From: Theodoxus fluviatilis
Taxonomy: Eukaryota; Mollusca; Gastropoda; Cycloneritida; Neritidae
Direction of reading: 5' to 3'
DNA: 64,000 nt
Assembly: GCA_034096865.1 (NCBI GenBank)
Contig: JAWQFJ010026552.1
Coordinates: 1 to 64,000 of the forward strand
The notes under the pieces were generated by a model. That model made no database searches, was not told the DNA's origin, and worked only from the letters and a program-made list of their open reading frames with translations. The translations under genes and the position numbers were made by a program. Below are positions 996-64,000 of this stretch, in pieces; position 1 is the first letter of the stretch, and each line of letters opens with the position of its first letter.

Positions 996-3344
996 CCACC
1001 AGCCCCCTCCTACCAGCCTCTTCCTACCAGTCCCCTCCTACCAGCCTCTTCCTACCAGTCCCCTCCTACCAGCCTCTTCCTACCAGACCCCTCCTACCAG
1101 CCTCTTCCTACCAGCCTCCTCCTACCAGTCCCCTCCTACCAGCCTCTTCCTACCAGACCCCTCCTACCAGCCTCTTCCTACCAGCCCCCTCCTACCAGCC
1201 TCTTCCTACCAGTCCCCTCCTACCAGCCTCTTCCTACCAGTCCCCTCCTACCAGCCTCTTCCTACCAGACCCCTTGCCCTTCCTACCAGCCTCTTCCTCA
1301 CCATGTCCCCCTCGCTACCAGCCTCTTCCTACCAGACCTCTCCTACCAGTCCCCTCCTACCAGCCTCTTCCTACCAGACCCCTCTACCTATCCAGCCTCT
1401 TCCTACCAGTCCCCTCCTACCAGCCTCTTCCTACCAGCCTCTTCCTACCAGACCCCTCCTACCAGACTCTCTTCCTACCAGCCTCTTCCTACCAGCCTCT
1501 TCCTACCAGCCTCTTCCCTACCAGCCCCCTCCTACCAGTCCTCTTCCTACCAGCCTCTTCCTACCAGACCCCTCCTACCAGCCTCTTCCCTACCAGACCC
1601 CTCCTACCAGCCTCTTCCTACCAGCTTCTTCCTACCAGCCTCTCTACGGGGCCAGCCTCCTACCAGCCTCTTCCTACCAGCCTCTTCCTACCAGCCCCCT
1701 CCTACCAGCCTCTTCCTACCAGTCCCCTCCTACCAGCCTCTTCCTACCAGTCCCCTCCTACCAGCCTCTTCCTACCAGCTTCTTCCTACCAGCCCCCTCC
1801 TACCAGACCCCTCCTACCAGACCCCTCCTACCAGCCTCTTCCTATCAGCCTCTCTATACCAGCCTCTTCCTACCAGCCTCTTCCTACCAGCCTCTTCCTA
1901 CCAGCCTCTTCCTACCAGCCTCTTCCTGCCAGCCCCCTCCTACCAGCCTCTTTCCTAGCAGCCCCTCTCCTACCAGCTCTGCCCTACCCAGACCCCTCCT
2001 ACCAGTCCTCTTCCAACAGCCCCTCTTCCTAGCCAGCCTCTTCCTACAAGCCTCTTCCTACCATACCCCGCCTATATCCATAGCCCCCCTCACCTCCAAC
2101 AGCCTCGGTTCCCTACCATGGACCTCCTACCAGCCCCTTACCGTAACCTGCCCATTCCTACAAGCCTTCTTCCTACCAGACCCCCTCCCTACAGCCTCTT
2201 CCCTACCAGACCCTCTGCCTACCAGCATCTCAAGTCTTCCCTAACTCAGTACCCCGGCCTACCAGACCCCTCCTACCATCCTCTTCCTAACCCCCCCCCC
2301 CCAGCCTCTCCTACCTAGCCTCTTCCTGACGAGCCTCTCTACCAGACCACTCCCTGACCAGCCTCTCCTCCTACCAGCCTCTTCCTACCAGCCTCTTTCC
2401 TACCAGACCCCTCCTACCCCCTCTCTACAGCTCTTGCCTACAGAGCCTCTTCCTACCAGCCCCCCTCCTACCAGCCTCTTCCTACCAGCCTCTCTATACC
2501 AGCCTCTTCCTACCAGCCCCCTCCTACCAGACCCCTCCTACCAGCCTCTTCCTACCAGCCTCTTCCTACCAGCCTCTTCCTACCAGACCCCTCCTACCAG
2601 CCTCTTCCCTACCAGACCCCTCCTACCAGCCTCTTCCCTACCACAAACCCCTCCTCCCAGCCTCTCCTACCAGCCTCTTCCTACCAGTCCTCTTCCTACC
2701 AGCCGTCTTCCTGACCAGACCCCGTCCTACCAGCCTCTTCCTACCAGCCTCTTCCTGCCAGCCCTCTCCTACCAGCCTCTTTATACCAGCCCCCTCCTAC
2801 CAGCCTATGCTCTACCAGCCTCTTCCACCAGCCCCTCACCGCCCTCTCCTACCAGCCTCTTTATACCAGCCCCCTCCTACCAGCCTCTTCCTACCAGCCT
2901 CTCTCCTAACAGCCTCTTCCTACCAGCCCTTCCTACCAGCCTCTTCCTAGCCAGACCCTCTTCCTACCAGACCTCCGGTCCTACCGAGCCTTCCTACAGC
3001 CTCTTCTACCAGCCTCTTCCTACCGGACCCCTCTACCAGCCTCTTCCTACCAGCCTCTTCCTGACCAGCCTCTTCCTATCCAGCGCTCTTCCTGCCAGCC
3101 TCCATCCTACCAGCCCCTTCGTTCCACCCTTCTACCAGCCCCCTCCTCCCTGAGCCTCCTCCCCTACCGCCTCGCTCCTACCGACCTCTTCCTACCCAGC
3201 CTCTTCCCTACCCAGACCCCTGCCTACACAGCCTCTTCCTACCAGCCTCTTGCCCCTAGCCCAGCTCGCTCTTCTCTCTACCGCTAGCGCTGCCCTTTAT
3301 AACCTAGCCCCCTCCACCAGCCTCTTCCTACCTTCCTTCTCTAC
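996..3344. repeat. 14-bp minisatellite, left block
   Basis: Tandem array with consensus unit TACCAGCCTCTTCC. Variants carry CCCCTCC or ACCCCTCC in place of CCTCTTCC. The array is regular from 996 to about 1950. It then becomes irregular, with indels and odd bases (about 1950-2435 and 2640-3344), and is regular again at about 2440-2640. The unit has no stop codon in any + strand frame, so three long overlapping frames result, rich in Ser, Pro, Tyr and Leu. They are a by-product of the repeat. Confidence 0.95.
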
Positions 3345-3524
3345 CAGACCCCCCGCCCCGCCACCACCCCCCCCGCGGCTCTTCCCCACCCCTCCCCCCT
3401 CCCCCCCCCCACCCCCCCCCCCCGCCCCCCTACCCGCGCGCCGCCCATCACCCCCCCCCCCCCCCCCCCACCCCCCCCCCCCCCCCCCCCCCCCACCTCC
3501 CCCCCCCCCCCTTCCCCCCCCGCC

Positions 3525-3598
<74 letters not shown>

Positions 3599-3908
3599 AT
3601 GCGAGCTCCCCCCTACCCCCCCACTTCCCGCCGCGCCCCCCCCCCCCCCCTCCCCCCACCCCCCCCCCTCCACCCCCACCCCCGCCCCCCCCCCCCCACC
3701 CCCCCCCCCCCCCCCCCCCCCTCACCCCCACCTTTCCCCCCACCCCCCCCCCCCCCCCCCCCCCCCCCCAACCCTCCCCACCCCCCCCACACCCCACCCC
3801 CCCCCCCCCCCCACCACCCCCCCCCCCCCCCCCCCCCCCCCACCCCCACCCCCCCCCCCCCCCCCCCCCCCCCCCCCACCCCCCCCCCCCTCCCCCCCCC
3901 CCTCCACC

Positions 3909-3997
<89 letters not shown>

Positions 3998-4004
3998 CCC
4001 CCCG

Positions 4005-4046
<42 letters not shown>

Positions 4047-4108
4047 ACCCCCCCCCCCCCCCCACCACCCCCCGCCCCCCCCCCCCCCCCCACCCCCCCC
4101 CGCCCCAA
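3345..4108. repeat. Poly-C low-complexity block
   Basis: About 760 bases that are almost all C, with scattered A and rare T or G, sitting inside the 14-bp minisatellite. The array degrades gradually into it from the left and recovers abruptly on the right. This is more like a failed consensus over a hard repeat than a biological boundary. A real C-rich tract able to form i-motif or G-quadruplex structures is the alternative. Confidence 0.85.
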
Positions 4109-4164
4109 CCACCTCCTCCCATATCCTCTCCTAGTCCAGAGCTCGCCTCGCATCCTTACCAGCT

Positions 4165-7100
4165 CTCTCTTCCTAACAGCCTCTCCTACCAGCCTCTTCC
4201 TACCAGCCCCCTCCTACCAGCCTCTTCCTACCAGCCCTCTTCCTACCAGCTCCCCTCCTACCAGCCCTCTTCCTACCAGCCCCTCCTACCAGCCTCTTCC
4301 TACCAGCCCCCTCCTACCAGCCTCTTCCTACCAGTCCCCTCCTACCAGCCTCTTCCTACCAGTCCCCTCCTACCAGCCTCTTCCTACCAGACCCCTCCTA
4401 CCAGCCTCTTCCTACCAGTCCCCTCCTACCAGCCTCTTCCTACCAGACCCCTCCTACCAGTCCCCTCCTACCAGCCTCTTCCTACCAGACCCCTCCTACC
4501 AGCCTCTTCCTACCAGCCTCCTCCTACCAGCCTCTTCCTACCAGCCTCTTCCTACCAGACCCCTCCTACCAGCCTCTTCCTACCAGCCTCTTCCTACCAG
4601 ACCCCTCCTACCAGCCTCTTCCTACCAGCCCCTCCTACCCCTCTTCCTACCAGCCTCTTCCTACCAGCCTCTTCCTACCAGCCCCCTCCTACCAGCCTCT
4701 TCCTACCAGCCTCTTCCTACCAGACCCCTCCTACCAGCCTCTTCCTACCAGCCCTCCTACCAGCCTCTTCCTACCAGTCCCTCCTACCAGCCTCTTCCTA
4801 CCAGCCTCTTCCTACCAGCCTCTTCCTGCCAGCTCCCTCCTACCAGCCTCTTCCTACCAGACCCCTCCTACCAGCCTCTTCCTACCAGCCCCCTTCTACC
4901 AGCCTCTTCCTACCAGCCCTTCCTACCAGTCCCCTCCTACCAGCCTCCTCCTACCAGCCTCTTCCTACCAGACCCCTCCTACCAGCCTCTTCCTACCAGC
5001 CTCCTACCAGCCTCTTCCTACCAGCCCCTTCCTACCAGCCTCTTCCTACCAGCCTCTTCCTACCAGCCTCTTCCTACCAGCCCCTCCTACCAGCCTCTTC
5101 CTACCAGCCCCCTCCTACCAGCCTCTTCCTACCAGCCTCTTCCTACCAGCCTCTTCCTACCAGCCTCTTCCTACCAGCCTCTTCCTACCAGCCTCTTCCT
5201 ACCAGCCTCTTCCTACCAGTCCCCTCCTACCAGCCTCTTCCTACCAGACCCCTCCTACCAGCCTCTTCCTACCAGCCTCTTCCTACCAGCCTCTTCCTAC
5301 CAGCCTCTTCCTACCAGACCCCTCCTACCAGCCTCTTCCTACCAGCCCCTCCTACCAGCCTCCTCCTACCAGCCTCTTCCTACCAGCCTCTTCCTACCAG
5401 ACCCCTCCTACCAGCCTCTTCCTACCAGCCTCCTCCTACCAGCCTCTTCCTACCAGCCTCCTCCTACCAGCCTCTTCCTACCAGCCTCTTCCTACCAGCC
5501 CCCTCCTACCAGCCTCTTCCTACCAGACCCCTCCTACCAGCCTCTTCCTACCAGACCCCTCCTACCAGCCTCTTCCTACCAGCCTCTTCCTACCAGCCTC
5601 TTCCTACCAGCCTCTTCCTACCAGCCTCTTCCTACCAGACCCCTCCTACCAGCCTCTTCCTACCAGCCTCTTCCTACCAGCCTCTTCCTACCAGCCTCCT
5701 CCTACCAGCCTCTTCCTACCAGCCTCCTCCTACCAGCCTCTTCCTACCAGCCTCTTCCTACCAGCCTCTTCCTACCAGCCTCTTCCTACCAGACCCCTCC
5801 TACCAGACCCCTCCTACCAGCCTCTTCCTACCAGCCTCTCCTACCAGCCTCTTCCTACCAGCCTCTTCCTACCAGCCTCTTCCTACCAGCCTCTTCCTAC
5901 CAGCCTCCTCCTACCAGCCTCTTCCTACCAGCCCCCTCCTACCAGCCTCTTCCTACCAGCCTCTTCCTACCAGACCCCTCCTACCAGCCTCTTCCTACCA
6001 GCCTCTCTATACCAGCCTCTTCCTACCAGCCTCTTCCTGCCAGCCCCCTCCTACCAGCCTCTTTCTACCAGCCCCCTCCTACCAGCCTCTTCCTACCAGC
6101 CTCTTCCTACCAGCCTCTTCCTACCAGCCTCTTCCTACCAGCCTCTTCCTACCAGCCTCTTCCTACCAGCCTCTTCCTACCAGACCCCTCCTACCAGCCT
6201 CTTCCTACCAGACCCCTCCTACCAGCCTCTTCCTACCAGCCTCTTCCTACCAGCCTCTTCCTACCAGCCTCTTCCTACCAGCCCTCTCCTACCAGCCTCT
6301 TCCTACCAGCCTCTTCCTACCAGCCTCTTCCTACCAGCCTCTTCCTACCAGACCCCTCCTACCAGCCTCTTCCTACCAGACCCCTCCTACCAGCCTCTTC
6401 CTACCAGCCTCCTCCTACCAGCCTCTTCCTACCAGCCTCTTCCTACCAGCCTCTTCCTACCAGCCTCTTCCTACCAGACCCCTCCTACCAGCCTCTTCCT
6501 ACCAGCCTCTTCCTACCAGCCTCTTCCTACCAGCCTCTTCCTACCAGCCTCTTCCTACCAGACCCCTCCTACCAGCCTCTTCCTACCAGACCCCTCCTAC
6601 CAGCCTCTTCCTACCAGCCTCTTCCTACCAGCCTCTTCCTACCAGCCTCTTCCTACCAGCCTCCTCCTACCAGCCTCTTCCTACCAGCCTCTTCCTACCA
6701 GCCTCTTCCTACCAGACCCCTCCTACCAGACCCCTCCTACCAGCCCCTTCCTACCAGCCTCTTCCTACCAGCCTCTTCCTACCAGCCTCTTCCTACCAGC
6801 CTCCTCCTACCAGCCTCTTCCTACCAGCCTCTTCCTACCAGCCTCTTCCTACCAGCCCCCTCCTACCAGCCTCTTCCTACCAGCCTCTTCCTACCAGCCT
6901 CTTCCTACCAGCCTCTTCCTACCAGCCTCTTCCTACCAGCCTCTTCCTACCAGACCCCTCCTACCAGCCTCTTCCTACCAGCCTCCTCCTACCAGCCTCT
7001 TCCTACCAGACCCCTCCTACCAGCCTCTTCCTACCAGCCTCTTCCTACCAGCCTCTTCCTACCAGCCTCTTCCTACCAGCCTCCTCCTACCAGCCCCCTC

Positions 7101-7807
7101 CTACCAGCCTCTTCCTACCAGCCTCCTCCTACCAGCGCCTTCCTACCAGCCTCCTCCTACCAGCCCCTTCCTACCAGCCCCTTCCTACCAGCCTCCTCCT
7201 ACCAGCCTCCTCCTACCAGCCTCCTCCTACCAGCCTCTTCCTACCAGCCTCTTCCTACCAGACCCCTCCTACCAGCCTCTTCCTACCAGCCTCTTCCTAC
7301 CAGCCTCTTCCTACCAGCCTCTTCCTACCAGACCCCTCCTACCAGCCCCTCCTACCAGCCTCTTCCTACCAGCCTCTTCCTACCAGCCTCCTCCTACCAG
7401 CCCCCTCCTACCAGACCCCTCCTACCAGCCTCTTCCTACCAGCCTCCTCCTACCAGCCTCTTCCTACCAGCCTCTCTATACCAGCCTCTTCCTACCAGCC
7501 CCCTCCTACCAGACCCCTCCTACCAGCCTCTTCCTACCAGCCTCTCTATACCAGCCTCCTCCTACCAGCCCCCTCCTACCAGACCCCTCCTACCAGCCTC
7601 TTCCTACCAGCCTCCTCCTACCAGCCTCTTCCTACTAGCCTCTTCCTACCAGCCTCTTCCTACCAGACCCCTCCTACCAGCCTCTTCCTACCAGCCTCTT
7701 CCTACCAGCCTCTTCCTACCAGCCTCTTCCTACCAGACCCCTCCTACCAGCCTCTTCCTACCAGCCTCTTCCTACCAGACCCCTCCTACCAGCCCCCTCC
7801 TACCAGA
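4165..7807. repeat. 14-bp minisatellite, right block
   Basis: Same TACCAGCCTCTTCC unit as the left block, about 260 copies and much cleaner. CCTCTTCC, CCCCTCC, ACCCCTCC and CCTCCTCC variants are interspersed, and short runs such as the CCTCTCTATACCAG variant recur (near 6001, 7470 and 7540), which indicates local block duplications. A 1421-codon open frame crosses this block and the poly-C block. Every + frame is open because 14 bp is not a multiple of three and the unit lacks stops, so it is not evidence of a gene. Confidence 0.97.
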
Positions 7808-22492: not shown

Positions 22493-22807
22493 TTGAAAGA
22501 TATTATTTTCCTGCTGGCATTACTACGGGTGGGTATATGTAAACTAATTTTTAAAATTATTAAGAGTGTGCACCTTGACAGAAAATGCAGATATCAAACT
22601 CAGAAAGATTTTTTTTTCAAAATATGTTATTTCTCACTTATTGTATATTTTGGCTATCACTTGAAAACACGTTTTTGGACTTCTGCGCCTTTTCACCTGG
22701 ACGCTCACATCAACGCAGCAGAAGGCGGTGGGACAGAGTCAACGACAGCAGGGGAACGGGCAGAAGGAAAAGCAGGTAAGTAACTGGAGCAGGAACTCAA
22801 TGCATGA

Positions 22808-24190
22808 AGGAAGGAAGGAGGAAGTTTTACAGCCCGTTGGTCTTCGAAGGCTATGTTAGGCCACTGATCACGGAAATCACTACAGCTGGTCGGAGCAAGA
22901 GCGAGTCAGTCACGATGTCCCTAGTCATTCGCCTCTCGCAAATCGCGCAGGGACACGCGGGGGGTCCATTCTAGCCCCCACCTCACAGGGAGACGCGCTG
23001 AGTCCACCTTCACCCCCACCTCACAGGGAGACGCGCTGAGTCCACCTTCACCCCCACCTCACAGGGAGACGCGCTGAGTCCACCTTCACCCCCACCTCAC
23101 AGGGAGACGCGCTGAGTCCACCTTCACCCCCACCTCACAGGGAGACGCGCTGAGTCCACCTTCACCCCCACCTCACAGGGAGACGCGCTGAGTCCACCTT
23201 CACCCCCACCTCACAGGGAGACGCGCTGAGTCCACCTTCACCCCCACCTCACAGGGAGACGCGGGGGGTCCACCTTCACCCCCACCTCACAGGGAGACGC
23301 GCTGAGTCCACCTTCACCCCCACCTCACAGGGAGACGCGCTGGGTCCACCTTCACCCCCACCTCACAGGGAGACGCGCTGAGTCCACCTTCACCCCCACC
23401 TCACAGGGAGACGCGCTGGGGTCCATCTTCTCCCCCACCTCACAGGGAGACGCGCTGAGTCCACCTTCACCCCCACCTCACAGGGAGACGCGCTGAGTCC
23501 ATTCTAGCCCCCACCTCACAGGGAGACGCGCTGAGTCCATTCTAGCCCCCACCTCACAGGGAGACGCGCTGAGTCCATTCTAGCCCCCACCTCACAGGGA
23601 GACGCGGGGGGTCCATCTTCACCCCCACCTCACAGGGAGACGCGGGGGGTCCATTCTAGCCTCCACCTCACAGGGAGACGCGGGGGGTCCATCTTCACCC
23701 CCACCTCACAGGGAGACGCGGGGGGTCCATATTCACCCCCACCTCACAGGGAGACGCGCTGGGTCCATTCTAGCCCCCACCTCACAGGGAGACGCGGGGG
23801 GTCCATTCTAGCCCCCACCTCACAGGGAGACGCGGGGGGTCCATATTCACCCCCACCTCACAGGGAGACGCGGGGGGTCCATCTTCACCCCCACCTCACA
23901 GGGAGACGCGGGGGGTCCATCTTCACCCCCACCTCACAGGGAGACGCGGGGGGTCCATCTTCACCCCCACCTCACAGGGAGACGCGGGGGGTCCATTCTA
24001 GCCCCCACCTCACAGGGAGACGCGGGGGGTCCATTCTAGCCCCCACCTCACAGGGAGACGCGGGGGGTCCATCTTCACCCCCACCTCACAGGGAGACGCG
24101 GGGGGTCCATTCTAGCCCCCACCTCACAGGGAGACGCGGGGGGTCCATCTTCACCCCCACCTCACAGGGGAATCCGGGGTTGAGAAAAAG
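22808..24190. mobile_element. Interspersed element copy A, with internal satellite
   Basis: The copy begins with a GGAA simple repeat, then TTTTACAGCCCGTTGG, GGCTATGTTAGGCCAC, CACTACAGCTGGTCGGAGCA, CACGATGTCCCTAGTCATTC and GGAGACGCG-GGGGGTCCATTC. These segments align in the same order with copy B at 63263-63463. The last segment is then repeated as a 38-bp array (22979-24170). After the array, CACAGGGGAATCCGGGG resembles the CACAGAGGGATAGGGG that follows in copy B. The simple-repeat end and the hairpin suggest a SINE-like non-autonomous element whose 3' end points left, in minus orientation. I see no ORF and no tRNA-like promoter that I would defend. Confidence 0.7.
22979..24170. repeat. 38-bp satellite, about 31 copies, derived from the interspersed element
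   Basis: Unit CACCTCACAGGGAGACGCGC plus TGAGTCCACCTTCACCCC. The left half of the array is dominated by the GCTGAGTCCACC type. The middle (23480-23590) carries GCTGAGTCCATTCTAGCC. The right half carries GGGGGGTCCAT followed by CTTCACC or TCTAGCC. The GGGGGGTCCATTCTAGCC type is closest to the single-copy element sequence, so the left half looks like the more derived, homogenised end. Confidence 0.97.
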
Positions 24191-36528: not shown

Positions 36529-36644
36529 GATTGGTGGAATTGTACAGCCTATTAGTCTTTGCATGCTATTCGAAGCTATCGATCACAAGAAATGAGAGTT
36601 GATCAAAATAAGATGAAGTCAAGTAACGATTTTCCTAGTTCTTC
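36529..36644. mobile_element. Interspersed element copy D, diverged
   Basis: GGAAGGATTGGTGGAATTGT, ACAGCCTATTAGTCTTTGC, GATCACAAGAAAT and GATTTTCCTAGTTCTTCGC follow the order of copies A and B: simple-repeat end, hairpin, GATCACG, then CCCTAGTTATTCGC. It is divergent, and similarity stops where a degenerate short array begins. Confidence 0.5.
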
Positions 36645-36868
36645 GCTTTTGGTGTTACAAGTCCGCATTGACGTACCTAGTCAACGCTGGAGTTTAAAGT
36701 CAACGTTGGAATTTACAGTTTACTTTGGAGTTACGGGTTCACGTTCGAATTACAAGTAAACGTTGGAATTACAAGGCTGCACGTTGGTGTTACAAGTCTT
36801 CCCTGGAATTACAAGTCTACGATGAAACTGCAAGTCTACAATGAAGCCACAAGTCTACGATGGAGTTA
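36645..36868. repeat. Degenerate ~20-bp tandem repeat, about 11 copies
   Basis: Imperfect units around GTTGGAATTACAAGTCTAC (for example at 36700, 36755 and 36805). The array starts exactly where element copy D loses homology. Heavy divergence indicates age. Confidence 0.75.
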
Positions 36869-48800: not shown

Positions 48801-49013
48801 CCACCTCTCATCTCCCGCAATCCTTTGTTCACTCCTCTCCAGGGATATCCATAACTGCCGCCACACAATGCAACAAAAAGTAAAATTTACAGTTTTATAC
48901 ATGCGCGGAAAGGAAAAAAATCACGCACTTTTCCAATCCAGTAGAGCTACAACGTGGATCCAAATCGACCTCAACTTAGCGCTCGTGCTACGAGAATAAA
49001 TGAGTAGAGAAGG

Positions 49014-51405
49014 AAGGAAAGACGGAAAGGAGGGAAGTTGGTTCTGCGGCTGACCTGCCTTTGTAGACGTTTCTAAGGCCACGGATCAAACGAGCGCTCC
49101 GCTACAGCTGGTGTAAGAGCAAGTCCGCTACAGCTGGTGTAAGAGCAAGTCCGCTACAGCTGGTGTAAGAGCAAGTCCGCTACAGCTGGTGTAAGAGCAA
49201 GTCCGCTACAGCTGGTGTAAGAGCAAGTCCGCTACAGCTGGTGTAAGAGCAAGTCCGCTACAGCTGGTGTAAGAGCAAGTCCGCTACAGCTGGTGTAAGA
49301 GCAAGTCCGCTACAGCTGGTGTAAGAGCAAGTCCGCTACAGCTGGTGTAAGAGCAAGTCCGCTACAGCTGGTGTAAGAGCAAGTCCGCTACAGCTGGTGT
49401 AAGAGCAAGTCCGCTACAGCTGGTGTAAGAGCAAGTCCGCTACAGCTGGTGTAAGAGCAAGTCCGCTACAGCTGGTGTAAGAGCAAGTCCGCTACAGCTG
49501 GTGTAAGAGCAAGTCCGCTACAGCTGGTGTAAGAGCAAGTCCGCTACAGCTGGTGTAAGAGCAAGTCCGCTACAGCTGGTGTAAGAGCAAGTCCGCTACA
49601 GCTGGTGTAAGAGCAAGTCCGCTACAGCTGGTGTAAGAGCAAGTCCGCTACAGCTGGTGTAAGAGCAAGTCCGCTACAGCTGGTGTAAGAGCAAGTCCGC
49701 TACAGCTGGTGTAAGAGCAAGTCCGCTACAGCTGGTGTAAGAGCAAGTCCGCTACAGCTGGTGTAAGAGCAAGTCCGCTACAGCTGGTGTAAGAGCAAGT
49801 CCGCTACAGCTGGTGTAAGAGCAAGTCCGCTACAGCTGGTGTAAGAGCAAGTCCGCTACAGCTGGTGTAAGAGCAAGTCCGCTACAGCTGGTGTAAGAGC
49901 AAGTCCGCTACAGCTGGTGTAAGAGCAAGTCCGCTACAGCTGGTGTAAGAGCAAGTCCGCTACAGCTGGTGTAAGAGCAAGTCCGCTACAGCTGGTGTAA
50001 GAGCAAGTCCGCTACAGCTGGTGTAAGAGCAAGTCCGCTACAGCTGGTGTAAGAGCAAGTCCGCTACAGCTGGTGTAAGAGCAAGTCCGCTACAGCTGGT
50101 GTAAGAGCAAGTCCGCTACAGCTGGTGTAAGAGCAAGTCCGCTACAGCTGGTGTAAGAGCAAGTCCGCTACAGCTGGTGTAAGAGCAAGTCCGCTACAGC
50201 TGGTGTAAGAGCAAGTCCGCTACAGCTGGTGTAAGAGCAAGTCCGCTACAGCTGGTGTAAGAGCAAGTCCGCTACAGCTGGTGTAAGAGCAAGTCCGCTA
50301 CAGCTGGTGTAAGAGCAAGTCCGCTACAGCTGGTGTAAGAGCAAGTCCGCTACAGCTGGTGTAACGAGCAAGTCCGCTACAGCTGGTGTAAGAGCAAGTC
50401 CGCTACAGCTGGTGTAAGAGCAAGTCCGCTACAGCTGGTGTAAGAGCAAGTCCGCTACAGCTGGTGTAAGAGCAAGTCCGCTACAGCTGGTGTAAGAGCA
50501 AGTCCGCTACAGCTGGTGTAAGAGCAAGTCCGCTACAGCTGGTGTAAGAGCAAGTCCGCTACAGCTGGTGTAAGAGCAAGTCCGCTACAGCTGGTGTAAG
50601 AGCAAGTCCGCTACAGCTGGTGTAAGAGCAAGTCCGCTACAGCTGGTGTAAGAGCAAGTCCGCTACAGCTGGTGTAAGAGCAAGTCCGCTACAGCTGGTG
50701 TAAGAGCAAGTCCGCTACAGCTGGTGTAAGAGCAAGTCCGCTACAGCTGGTGTAAGAGCAAGTCCGCTACAGCTGGTGTAAGAGCAAGTCCACGCTCCGC
50801 TACAGCTGGTGTAAGAGCAAGTCCGCTACAGCTGGTGTAAGAGCAAGTCCGCTACAGCTGGTGTAAGAGCAAGTCCGCTACAGCTGGTGTAAGAGCAAGT
50901 CCGCTACAGCTGGTGTAAGAGCAAGTCCGCTACAGCTGGTGTAAGAGCAAGTGCACGCTCCGCTACAGCTGGTGTAAGAGCAAGTCCACGCTCCGCTACA
51001 GCTGGTGTAAGAGCAAGTCCGCTACAGCTGGTGTAAGAGCAAGTCCGCTACAGCTGGTGTAAGAGCAAGTGCACGCTCCGCTACAGCTGGTGTAAGAGCA
51101 AGTCCGCTACAGCTGGTGTAAGAGCAAGTCCGCTACAGCTGGTGTAAGAGCAAGTCCGCTACAGCTGGTGTAAGAGCAAGTCCGCTACAGCTGGTGTAAG
51201 AGCAAGTCCGCTACAGCTGGTGTAAGAGCAAGTCCGCTACAGCTGGTGTAAGAGCAAGTCCGCTACAGCTGGTGTAAGAGCAAGTCCGCTACAGCTGGTG
51301 TAAGAGCAAGTCCGCTACAGCTGGTGTAAGAGCAAGTGCAGTCTCGATTTCCCTCCTGTTAGCTACTCGCCTTTCACTTTATCAACTGCGTGGGAAGATG
51401 CAATG
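49014..51405. mobile_element. Interspersed element copy C, with internal satellite
   Basis: The left flank (49014-49098) reads GGAA-rich sequence, CTGCCTTTGTAGACGTTTC, TAAGGCCACGGATCAAACGA, in the order of copy A. The 26-bp array starts at the position equivalent to CACTACAGCTGGTCGGAGCA in copy A. After the array, CAGTCTCGATTTCCCTCCTG, AGCTACTCGCCTTTC and GGGTGTCCTCTT correspond to CAGTCACGATGTCCCTAGTC, ATTCGCCTCTC and GGGGGTCCATTC. The array therefore sits inside the element, flanked by the two remaining parts. Confidence 0.65.
49099..51337. repeat. 26-bp satellite, about 86 copies, derived from the interspersed element
   Basis: Unit CCGCTACAGCTGGTGTAAGA plus GCAAGT. Most of the 2.2 kb is perfect. 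The few variant junctions cluster on the right: GTAACGAGC near 50364, and CACGCTCCGCTAC insertions at about 50791, 50951, 50984 and 51070, which resemble the GCGCTCCGCTAC of the left flank. TAA in the unit closes all frames. Confidence 0.99.
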
Positions 51406-51804
51406 GGTGTCCTCTTAAACACACGCGCACGCACACGCTCACTTACGCACGCACATACACACATGCACAGAAAGGCTGCTACAAGAAAGTGTCACTTTAA
51501 AAGCACGAACAATAGGGTAGCAAACAATTGTTGGCGTTTTAATCCAGTCCTGCGAGTTCACCCAATGACTTCGGTGACCATTACTAAAGTGAACGGAAAC
51601 CCAGAGATAGAAAGGCCTGCAAAGGTTTTCCTCTACAGGGGTAGCCAGGTTGCGAAGATGGAATTGAGCGCATAGCCGAAGAGTGTAGGAGAGGAGGAAG
51701 CAAGAGAGAGCGACGTTCTGCCCATCCTGCCCGCCAGACTTCGCACGTGGCCAGTCTGCTCAGTCAGTGAGGCCTGGCACCCACCCACTAGGGATCGGTC
51801 AAAA
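51406..51804. other. Unique sequence, no firm gene
   Basis: A 90-codon + strand frame (51403-51675) lacks a recognised domain. Confidence 0.4.
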
Positions 51805-63219: not shown

Positions 63220-63262
63220 GTCAGCGTAACGGGCGGTGTACCGAGCAACTGCCTTGGGGTGT

Positions 63263-63463
63263 GGATGGATGGATTGAGTTTTACGGCCTATCAGCCTTTG
63301 TAGGCTATATAAGGCCATTAAGCACGAAAATTATCACTAGAACAGTTTAGAGTAAACGAGAATCAAGCCACGGTGTCCCTAGTTATTCGCCTCTTACGAA
63401 TCGCGTATAGGAGACGCGGTGGGTCAATTCTTACCCCGAGCCCACAGAGGGATAGGGGTGTGG
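63263..63463. mobile_element. Interspersed element copy B, apparently without array expansion
   Basis: GGAT repeats, then TTTTACGGCCTATCAGCC, TTTGTAGGCTATATAAGGCC, CACGGTGTCCCTAGTTATTC, GCCTCTTACGAATCGCG, GGAGACGCGGTGGGTCAATTC and CACAGAGGGATAGGGG. The hairpin AGCCT (63293-63297)/AGGCT (63302-63306) has an outer stem GGCCT (63285-63289)/AGGCC (63312-63316). It is the best single-copy reference for copies A, C and D. Confidence 0.7.
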
Positions 63464-63479: not shown

Positions 63480-63684
63480 GGCTTTAAAGAACTGTGATAC
63501 AATTTTTGATAGATTCTGAGTATTATTTTCTTCTATGAGTCGTACTAAATCTTCCTTGTTTTCGATAATTCTCCACTTATCTCTTCTGAGGTAATCTTTT
63601 AATTGCACATTTTTATACAGCGGAAGTACGTTGTAACCTTGAGTGGCCTTCACGGCTGATGAGTCCTTTGGATCCGCCCGCCCA
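63480..63684 (-). pseudogene. Short non-repetitive reading frame, probably transposon-derived
   Basis: On the minus strand, after ATGG repeats, the frame reads [19 protein letters not shown], then [20 protein letters not shown] and [15 protein letters not shown] before running into the antisense of copy B and stopping at 63363. It is Lys/Glu-rich and looks like real protein sequence rather than a repeat artefact, but I do not recognise a family. The start codons lie in the GGAT microsatellite, so the true N-terminus is unknown. The flanking element copies suggest a mobile-element origin. Confidence 0.35.
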
Positions 63685-63739
63685 TCCATCCATCCATCCA
63701 TCCATCCATCCATCCATCCATCCATCCATCCATCCATCC
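63685..63739. repeat. (ATCC)n microsatellite
   Basis: About 13 ATCC tetranucleotides. On the minus strand they are the GGAT end of element copies. Confidence 0.97.
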
Positions 63740-63832
63740 CTAAGTGCTTTGTGAATAACGAGGGAAATCGAGATGTGAATTTTGCCCTATCGCCCTTTAT
63801 GCTTTGAAGCCTCCGCGGGCTGATGGGCAGTG
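63740..63832 (-). mobile_element. Interspersed element fragment G
   Basis: Read on the minus strand: CCCATCAGCCCGCGGAGGCT, AAAGCATAAAGGGCGATAGG, ATCTCGATTTCCCTCGTTAT and TCACAAAGCAC. These follow the hairpin and then the CGGTGTCCCTAGTTATTCGCC core of copy B, with the middle deleted. The order is kept although identity is modest. Confidence 0.4.
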
Positions 63833-64000
63833 GGACTCGATATAATGGATTTGATGTGACTGATTAGATTAATTGTACTAGACTCCACTGTCGTGAAGTG
63901 TTTTATACTTTAGTAAAGATTGGTGTTTCTTAACGTTGTGGCCTTATATAGCCTGCAAGGCTGATAGGCCTTAAACTCACCCATCCATCCATCCATCCAT
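63833..64000 (-). mobile_element. Interspersed element copy E, truncated by the window end
   Basis: On the minus strand, GGATGG repeats are followed by TGAGTTTAAGGCCTATCAGC and CTTGCAGGCTATATAAGGCC, nearly identical to copy B. The hairpin loop is shortened to TGC with the AGCCT/AGGCT stem intact. Similarity fades toward 63850. The ATCC repeat continues past base 64000. Confidence 0.65.

What the first reader, a model, noticed from the sequence alone, without database searches (positions are those of the whole stretch)
49014..51405. A second satellite (26 bp, about 86 copies) from another segment of the same element
The unit contains CTACAGCTGGT...AGAGCAAGT, which corresponds to CTACAGCTGGTCGGAGCA...AGAGCGAGT in copy A. 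The left flank (CCTTTGTAG...AAGGCCACGGATCA) and right flank (CAGTCTCGATTTCCCT...ACTCGCC) are the adjacent parts of the element. Two unrelated-looking satellites in one window thus derive from neighbouring segments of one family, which points to an element with a general tendency to seed tandem arrays. I know of no description of this specific family.
Basis: partly seen in the sequence, partly recalled or inferred. Interest (0 to 1): 0.85.

Follow-up and report, generated by a model that had tools for sequence, protein, structure and literature searches.

The report
SINE segments grown into satellite arrays
A short mobile element scattered through this large genome has had pieces of itself multiplied into tandem repeats, and the 26-base array in this window is one private case; the kind of event is known, while this element and its repeated birthplace for arrays may be new.

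Summary
A near-perfect 26-bp array (85 copies, 49102-51337) sits inside one old copy of a dispersed element. The element is a ~170-bp SINE: 34 of 40 hits share one 5' end within 5 bp, 26 of 40 have target-site duplications (swapped flanks: at most 3), with an (ATCC)n tail. Both array flanks match the consensus (0 of 2000 shuffles each); the unit fills the gap between them, significant against copy A though not against the consensus alone. Two 33-bp units join both flanks exactly, so the array began from a 33-bp founder. The exact unit occurs only here (79 of 79). The window's 38-bp array is the SINE's 5' head. A pattern built on that head junction matches 1038 times (control 0), the listed rows at 24 loci. 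The middle segment recurs in tandem 492 times (control 5), the listed rows at 11 other loci with different periods; their flanks were not read. So both satellites come from one SINE, and both segments recur in tandem elsewhere. Whether the SINE seeds more than this repeat-rich genome's background is unproven (random sample: 1 of 11 copies, 0.35 expected). SINE-derived satellites are known in reptiles and suggested in a limpet.

The parts
49102..51337 (-). 26-bp tandem array, 85 copies, grown from SINE segment about cons 86-113
49013..49101 (-). 3' part of the SINE copy (hairpin region and GGAA-rich tail), left of the array
   Evidence: cons 120-163, 0 of 2000 shuffles
51338..51428 (-). 5' part of the same SINE copy, right of the array
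   Evidence: cons 6-84, 0 of 2000 shuffles
50767..50799 (-). 33-bp unit (GTCCACGCTCCG form), intermediate between founder and 26-bp unit; a second one starts at 50963
50930..50962 (-). 33-bp unit (GTGCACGCTCCG form) that joins both flank sequences exactly: founder form; a second one starts at 51048
22807..22947 (-). SINE copy A, body and 3' tail
   Evidence: 78.7% to consensus
22948..24169 (-). 38-bp array, 32 copies, from the 5' head of SINE copy A (cons 2-39); it runs up to the SINE's 5' end
63242..63458 (-). SINE copy C, not expanded, 92.8% to consensus, target-site duplication CCACACCCC
36529..36649 (-). SINE copy D (cons 57-179); a degenerate 19-bp array (36679-36862) begins about 30 bp beyond it, no head found past the array
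63936..63989 (+). partial SINE-like 3' end (cons 127-179), with further weak pieces towards 63634

Best explanation
A SINE of about 170 bp plus an (ATCC)n tail spread through the genome by target-primed retroposition (inferred from uniform 5' ends, tails and target-site duplications). Afterwards short segments of individual copies were duplicated and grew in place into minisatellites. In this copy a 33-bp middle segment was duplicated without a direct repeat at its borders, changed G to C, lost 7 bp between two TCC triplets, and the resulting 26-bp unit was multiplied to fill 79 of 84 positions (units read from the sequence; the order of steps is inferred). In copy A, in L027 and at loci found by a pattern built on that junction, the 5' head duplicated between CCCT at cons 2-5 and CCCT at cons 40-43, giving a 38-bp unit; slippage or unequal exchange at that short repeat is the likely mechanism (inferred). 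Other head junctions exist too (L053, 28 bp).
For: Uniform ends: 34 of 40 hits; target-site duplications 26 of 40 against a mean of 1.5 and a maximum of 3 with flanks swapped between copies in 30 repeats. Consensus. Flank mapping with shuffles; copies C and D found by a profile of A and B alone, 0 hits in reversed sequence. Two 33-bp units join left-flank CGCTCCG to right-flank GTGCA exactly. Exact 26-bp unit only at this locus, 79 of 79. Head junction pattern: 1038 matches, 0 control; joined to an exact body start at 16 loci, of 1915 exact heads. Seven of these 16 were read: 2, 2, 3, 3, 4, 8 and (L027) 6 head units; by eye, target-site duplications enclose the whole expanded element at L066, L068, L070 and L027, and both units of L070 share a private variant. 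Middle segment in tandem: 492 matches, 5 in control, 11 other loci among the listed rows with different periods.
Against: A 4-bp repeat is a weak cause; longer built-in repeats exist (GTAAGA 36 bp apart, TGATTT 29 bp apart), and the pattern could not see junctions made by them. The head shows no unusual DNA hairpin (z -0.01 and 0.25). The 11 middle-segment loci (2 of them with a single match) and 23 of the 24 head loci were not read, so their SINE setting rests on the motif and its backward control. No polymerase III promoter, tRNA head or partner LINE was shown. Excess of arrays at copies over background is not significant in the random sample.
Confidence: 0.83

Rival explanations
1. The SINE has no special tendency. 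The genome expands many kinds of sequence into minisatellites, and a family with a large copy number is simply a large target.
For: Tandem repeats make up 21% of 264 kb and 74 minisatellite arrays lie in it; random 200 kb: 1 of 11 copies holds an array, 0.35 expected, P 0.30; with the window 3 of 16, 0.72 expected, P 0.03, but the window was picked for this finding. Exact-class rate of head arrays is 16 of 1915.
Against: One junction (38 bp, CCCT to CCCT) recurs at 24 loci among the listed rows; a uniform background would not be expected to give that. No rate for other junctions or other SINE segments was obtained to compare it with.
Confidence: 0.45
2. Head duplications arise during retroposition: the reverse transcriptase, on reaching the 5' end CCCCT, re-anneals to the inner CCCT and copies the head again, or a source copy with a doubled head spread.
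For: Head arrays read here start at the 5' end and share one junction; target-site duplications enclose expanded copies; a 28-bp head array with another inner partner (L053) and a 13-bp duplication that includes the 5' end (L019) exist.
Against: Units carry locus-private variants (L070, and rows); counts run from 2 to 32; expanded copies show no subfamily of their own (GAATAA in 7 of 7, and in 4 of 5 scorable copies of the random sample and window); the middle-segment and 66-bp arrays do not touch the 5' end.
Confidence: 0.2
3. The resemblance of array flanks to copy A is chance or convergence of low-complexity sequence.
For: Single flank matches to copy A were reached by some shuffles (3 and 5 of 1000; left flank 45 of 2000).
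Against: Co-linear score and consensus tests exceed all shuffles; a profile of A and B finds C and D, and copy A finds 39 other genome copies.
Confidence: 0.02

Closest known systems
SINE-derived satellites (sSats) of squamate reptiles, Vassetzky et al. 2023, PMC10702118 (abstract, Background, snake section and Discussion read)
   Same: Tandem units from parts of a SINE, SINE remnant at one or both array ends, many loci, several segments used. The head arrays here have the paper's usual form, a SINE remainder on one side.
PcH-Sat of the limpet Patella caerulea, suggested to come from a Nin-SINE, PMC11121367 (passages read)
   Same: Satellite holding a SINE segment.
   Different: 179-bp unit, about 10% of the genome, pericentromeric; here a private array and short local ones.
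Minisatellites inside human transposable elements, PMC3389668 (abstract and section 3.4 read), and review PMC6947457 (passages read)
   Same: Local duplication of an element segment; a few flanked by direct repeats of 5-20 bp, most not.
   Different: Here one junction is reused at many loci of one family, with only a 4-bp repeat.

Membership tests
SINE | short dispersed family with a uniform 5' end | tested here: met
   34 of 40 hits start at model position 1-5; 190-bp pairwise blocks between unrelated flanks
SINE | target-site duplications | tested here: met
   8-17 bp in 26 of 40 hits; flanks swapped between copies give a mean of 1.5 and at most 3. L006's is simple sequence and L013/L014 are one region in two inverted copies
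SINE | simple-repeat 3' tail behind a LINE-derived 3' end | tested here: inconclusive
   (ATCC)n tail seen; hairpin 87% paired against at most 58% when slid, but paired cells reached by 73 of 500 shuffles, covariation score by 44, pair types by 24; DNA fold z -2.4; partner LINE not found
SINE | RNA polymerase III head (tRNA, 5S or 7SL) | tested here: inconclusive
   no tRNA gene in the window, no Rfam match at the gathering score in the window; in four loci with copies only five weak matches, none a tRNA and none on the SINE; a GATTCG B-box-like word is my own reading
SINE-derived satellite | tandem unit is a portion of the SINE with SINE sequence at an array end | tested here: met
   both sides for the 26-bp array; body on one side and the SINE's own 5' end on the other for copy A and L027 and six further loci
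SINE-derived satellite | many loci in the genome | tested here: met
   38-bp head: 24 loci in the listed rows of 1038 matches, 16 loci with exact body start
SINE-derived satellite | subtelomeric placement | not testable with these tools
   contigs carry no chromosome position

The most novel reading that the evidence does not exclude
The SINE carries a built-in satellite seed: at its 5' end the reverse transcriptase re-anneals to an inner CCCT and copies the 38-bp head again, in a telomerase-like way, so arrays are born at insertion and later grow; satellites would then be a regular by-product of retroposition.
Probability: 0.12. Interest if true: 0.75.

Novelty: new member of a known kind. 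Interest (0 to 1): 0.42.

Why it matters
One SINE family with a recurring 38-bp head junction at many loci and varied periods in its middle gives many natural replicates of the first step of satellite birth, which later turnover usually erases. The window array even keeps its founder form. It could show whether arrays start by slippage in place or during reverse transcription.

Tried and rejected
Chance similarity: rejected. Head hairpin as cause of slippage: not supported. A special expanded subfamily: suggested at first by 7 of 7 expanded copies against 4 of 36 scorable of the 40 hits, but those hits were drawn with copy A, and 4 of 5 scorable copies of the random sample and window carry the same state. 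Copy D's 19-bp array as a third element-born array: not claimed, since no SINE is found beyond it. A dispersed 26-bp satellite: rejected for the exact unit, which is private. Naming the organism: not achieved; no ORF was run against protein databases; exact patterns in viral and prokaryote genome collections and one blastn of copy C against plasmids gave nothing. Print search: six sequence words from the element and the unit gave 0 papers; the titles and abstract starts listed name nothing I could recognise as this family, and its sequence could not be compared with a SINE database. The body-segment control count (tandem GCGAATRACTAGGGA) did not complete, so head and middle cannot be compared with the rest of the SINE.

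Rows dropped: hits that are units of the window's 38-bp array were left out of the copy counts; 10 of 28 copies were left out of the consensus because truncated, expanded, duplicated or diverged.

Full report
What is there. The window is positions 1-64000 of one contig of a 965-Mb assembly of 19668 contigs. At 49102-51337 lies a 26-bp tandem array: 85 copies, 79 of 84 spacings of 26 bp with identical units, four of 33 bp, one of 27 bp. The exact unit occurs 79 times in the whole genome, all in this array, and not in the backward control, so it is a private minisatellite rather than a dispersed satellite.

The element. A profile built only from copy A (left of the 38-bp array) and the collapsed array copy B found two more copies in the window, C (77 bits) and D (31 bits). 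A genome search with copy A scored 40 of 2045 candidates; all 40 scored are matches at E 0.001, A itself among them. Aligned, they define a family of about 170 bp with an (ATCC)n tail; the consensus comes from 18 full-length copies of 28 looked at. Of the 40 hits, 34 begin at model position 1-5, and a script finds target-site duplications of 8-17 bp in 26 of 40; with flanks swapped between copies the same script finds 1.5 on average and at most 3. In the retroposon's own orientation the 3' end is a hairpin followed by GTAAAAC and the tail. Over 16 copies the hairpin is 87% paired against at most 58% when slid; support from shuffles is modest (paired cells 73 of 500, covariation 44, pair types 24 reach the observed). 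I call it a SINE; a polymerase III head was not shown. In a further 200 kb chosen without knowing of copies on those stretches, 11 copies reach E 1e-3, and none in reversed sequence. That points to some tens of thousands of copies, very roughly, since the contigs were the window's own or had a hit elsewhere.

The array is inside a SINE copy. Against copy A alone the flank evidence is mixed (left flank reached by 3 of 1000 shuffles locally and 45 of 2000 semi-globally; right flank 5 of 1000 and 0 of 2000), but the co-linear whole is above all of 1000 shuffles. Against the consensus, the window's left flank maps to cons 120-163 and the right flank to cons 6-84, each above all of 2000 shuffles; the unit maps to cons 86-113, not significant alone (392 of 2000) but clear against copy A (0 of 2000). 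Copy B is 70.8% identical to the consensus, while its array units are almost all identical: the insertion looks old and the expansion recent.

History readable in the array. The left flank ends in CGCTCCG and the right flank begins with GCAGTCTC. Two units carry GTGCACGCTCCG, exactly the join of the two flanks; two carry GTCCACGCTCCG; the rest carry GTCCG. The simplest order is a 33-bp founder duplication without border repeats, one G to C change, a 7-bp loss between two TCC triplets, then takeover by the 26-bp form. The order is inference.

The other satellite of the window. Units of the 38-bp array at 22948-24169 match cons 2-47, and the array runs from the body up to the SINE's own 5' end. 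The unit is bounded by CCCT at cons 2-5 and 40-43. L027 holds six such units inside a target-site duplication read by eye. Genome-wide, a pattern built on this junction, followed by another head end, occurs 1038 times (503 and 535 by strand; control 0); the rows listed, about a tenth, lie at 24 separate loci. The pattern presupposes the junction, so it says nothing on other junctions. Joined to an exact body start it occurs at 16 loci, of 1915 exact heads in all, 0.84%. Of the 16, seven were read: 2, 2, 3, 3, 4, 8 and (L027) 6 units; by eye target-site duplications enclose the whole expanded element at L066, L068, L070 and L027, and both units of L070 share a private variant.

The finding's own segment elsewhere. 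The middle-segment motif in tandem occurs 492 times against 5 in the control. By the spacing count, 84 of these are expected to be this array. The rows listed, about a fifth, lie at 11 other loci with periods of about 24, 24, 29, 32, 34, 36, 37, 39, 40, 40 and 41 bp, two of them with a single match. Different periods suggest different first duplications. Their flanks could not be read, so SINE origin there rests on an 11-base degenerate motif.

Other arrays at copies: L053 has a 28-bp head array, L002 a second copy with a 66-bp segment in three copies, L046 a 25-bp array of 16 copies that joins flank and first bases of the SINE.

How far the general claim goes. Tandem repeats take 21% of 264 kb and 40% of the window. 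In the random 200 kb one of 11 copies holds an array (0.35 expected, P 0.30); adding the window, 3 of 16 (0.72 expected, P 0.03), but the window was chosen for this finding. So two segments of this SINE are found in tandem at many loci, yet an excess over the genome's general habit is not proven. The control count for another SINE segment did not complete.

Known work. SINE-derived satellites are described in squamates (PMC10702118; abstract, Background, snake section, Discussion read) and suggested for a limpet satellite (PMC11121367; passages). Human transposable elements yield many minisatellites, mostly without border repeats (PMC3389668; abstract and section 3.4), and a review lists others (PMC6947457; passages). 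None of six sequence words of this element occurs in the text library. This is a new member of a known kind with an unusually clear, repeated first step.

Noticed in passing
window 1-64000: The window is 40% tandem repeat with 34 minisatellite arrays, against about 15% (worked out from the totals) and 40 arrays in the random 200 kb.
   Followed up: partly
window 998-7806: A 6.8-kb array of a 14-bp unit (about 482 copies) holding a C-rich run of about 720 bases.
   Followed up: no
L046:7373-7772: A 25-bp array of 16 copies straddles the 5' junction of a SINE copy: about 15 bp of flank plus 10 bp of head.
   Followed up: partly
L053:246-381 and L019:939-966: Other duplications that include the SINE 5' end: 28 bp in about 5 copies, and 13 bp in about 2 copies.
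   Followed up: partly
L002:1749-1947: A second SINE copy with its 66-bp hairpin segment in three tandem copies.
   Followed up: partly
L022:1156-1304 and L017:468-812: Arrays of 38 and 42 bp that overlap the 5' side of SINE copies by 18-30 bp and look mostly non-SINE.
   Followed up: no
L013 and L014 (contig C175): The same SINE and flanks occur twice in inverted orientation on one contig, about 18 kb apart.
   Followed up: no
window 63630-64000: A cluster of partial SINE-like 3' ends on the plus strand, each beside GGAT or CCAT runs, perhaps other SINEs or LINE ends sharing the hairpin.
   Followed up: partly
contig C2175, rows: The middle segment repeats there with a 29-bp period, the same as the spacing of a built-in TGATTT repeat of the consensus.
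   Followed up: no
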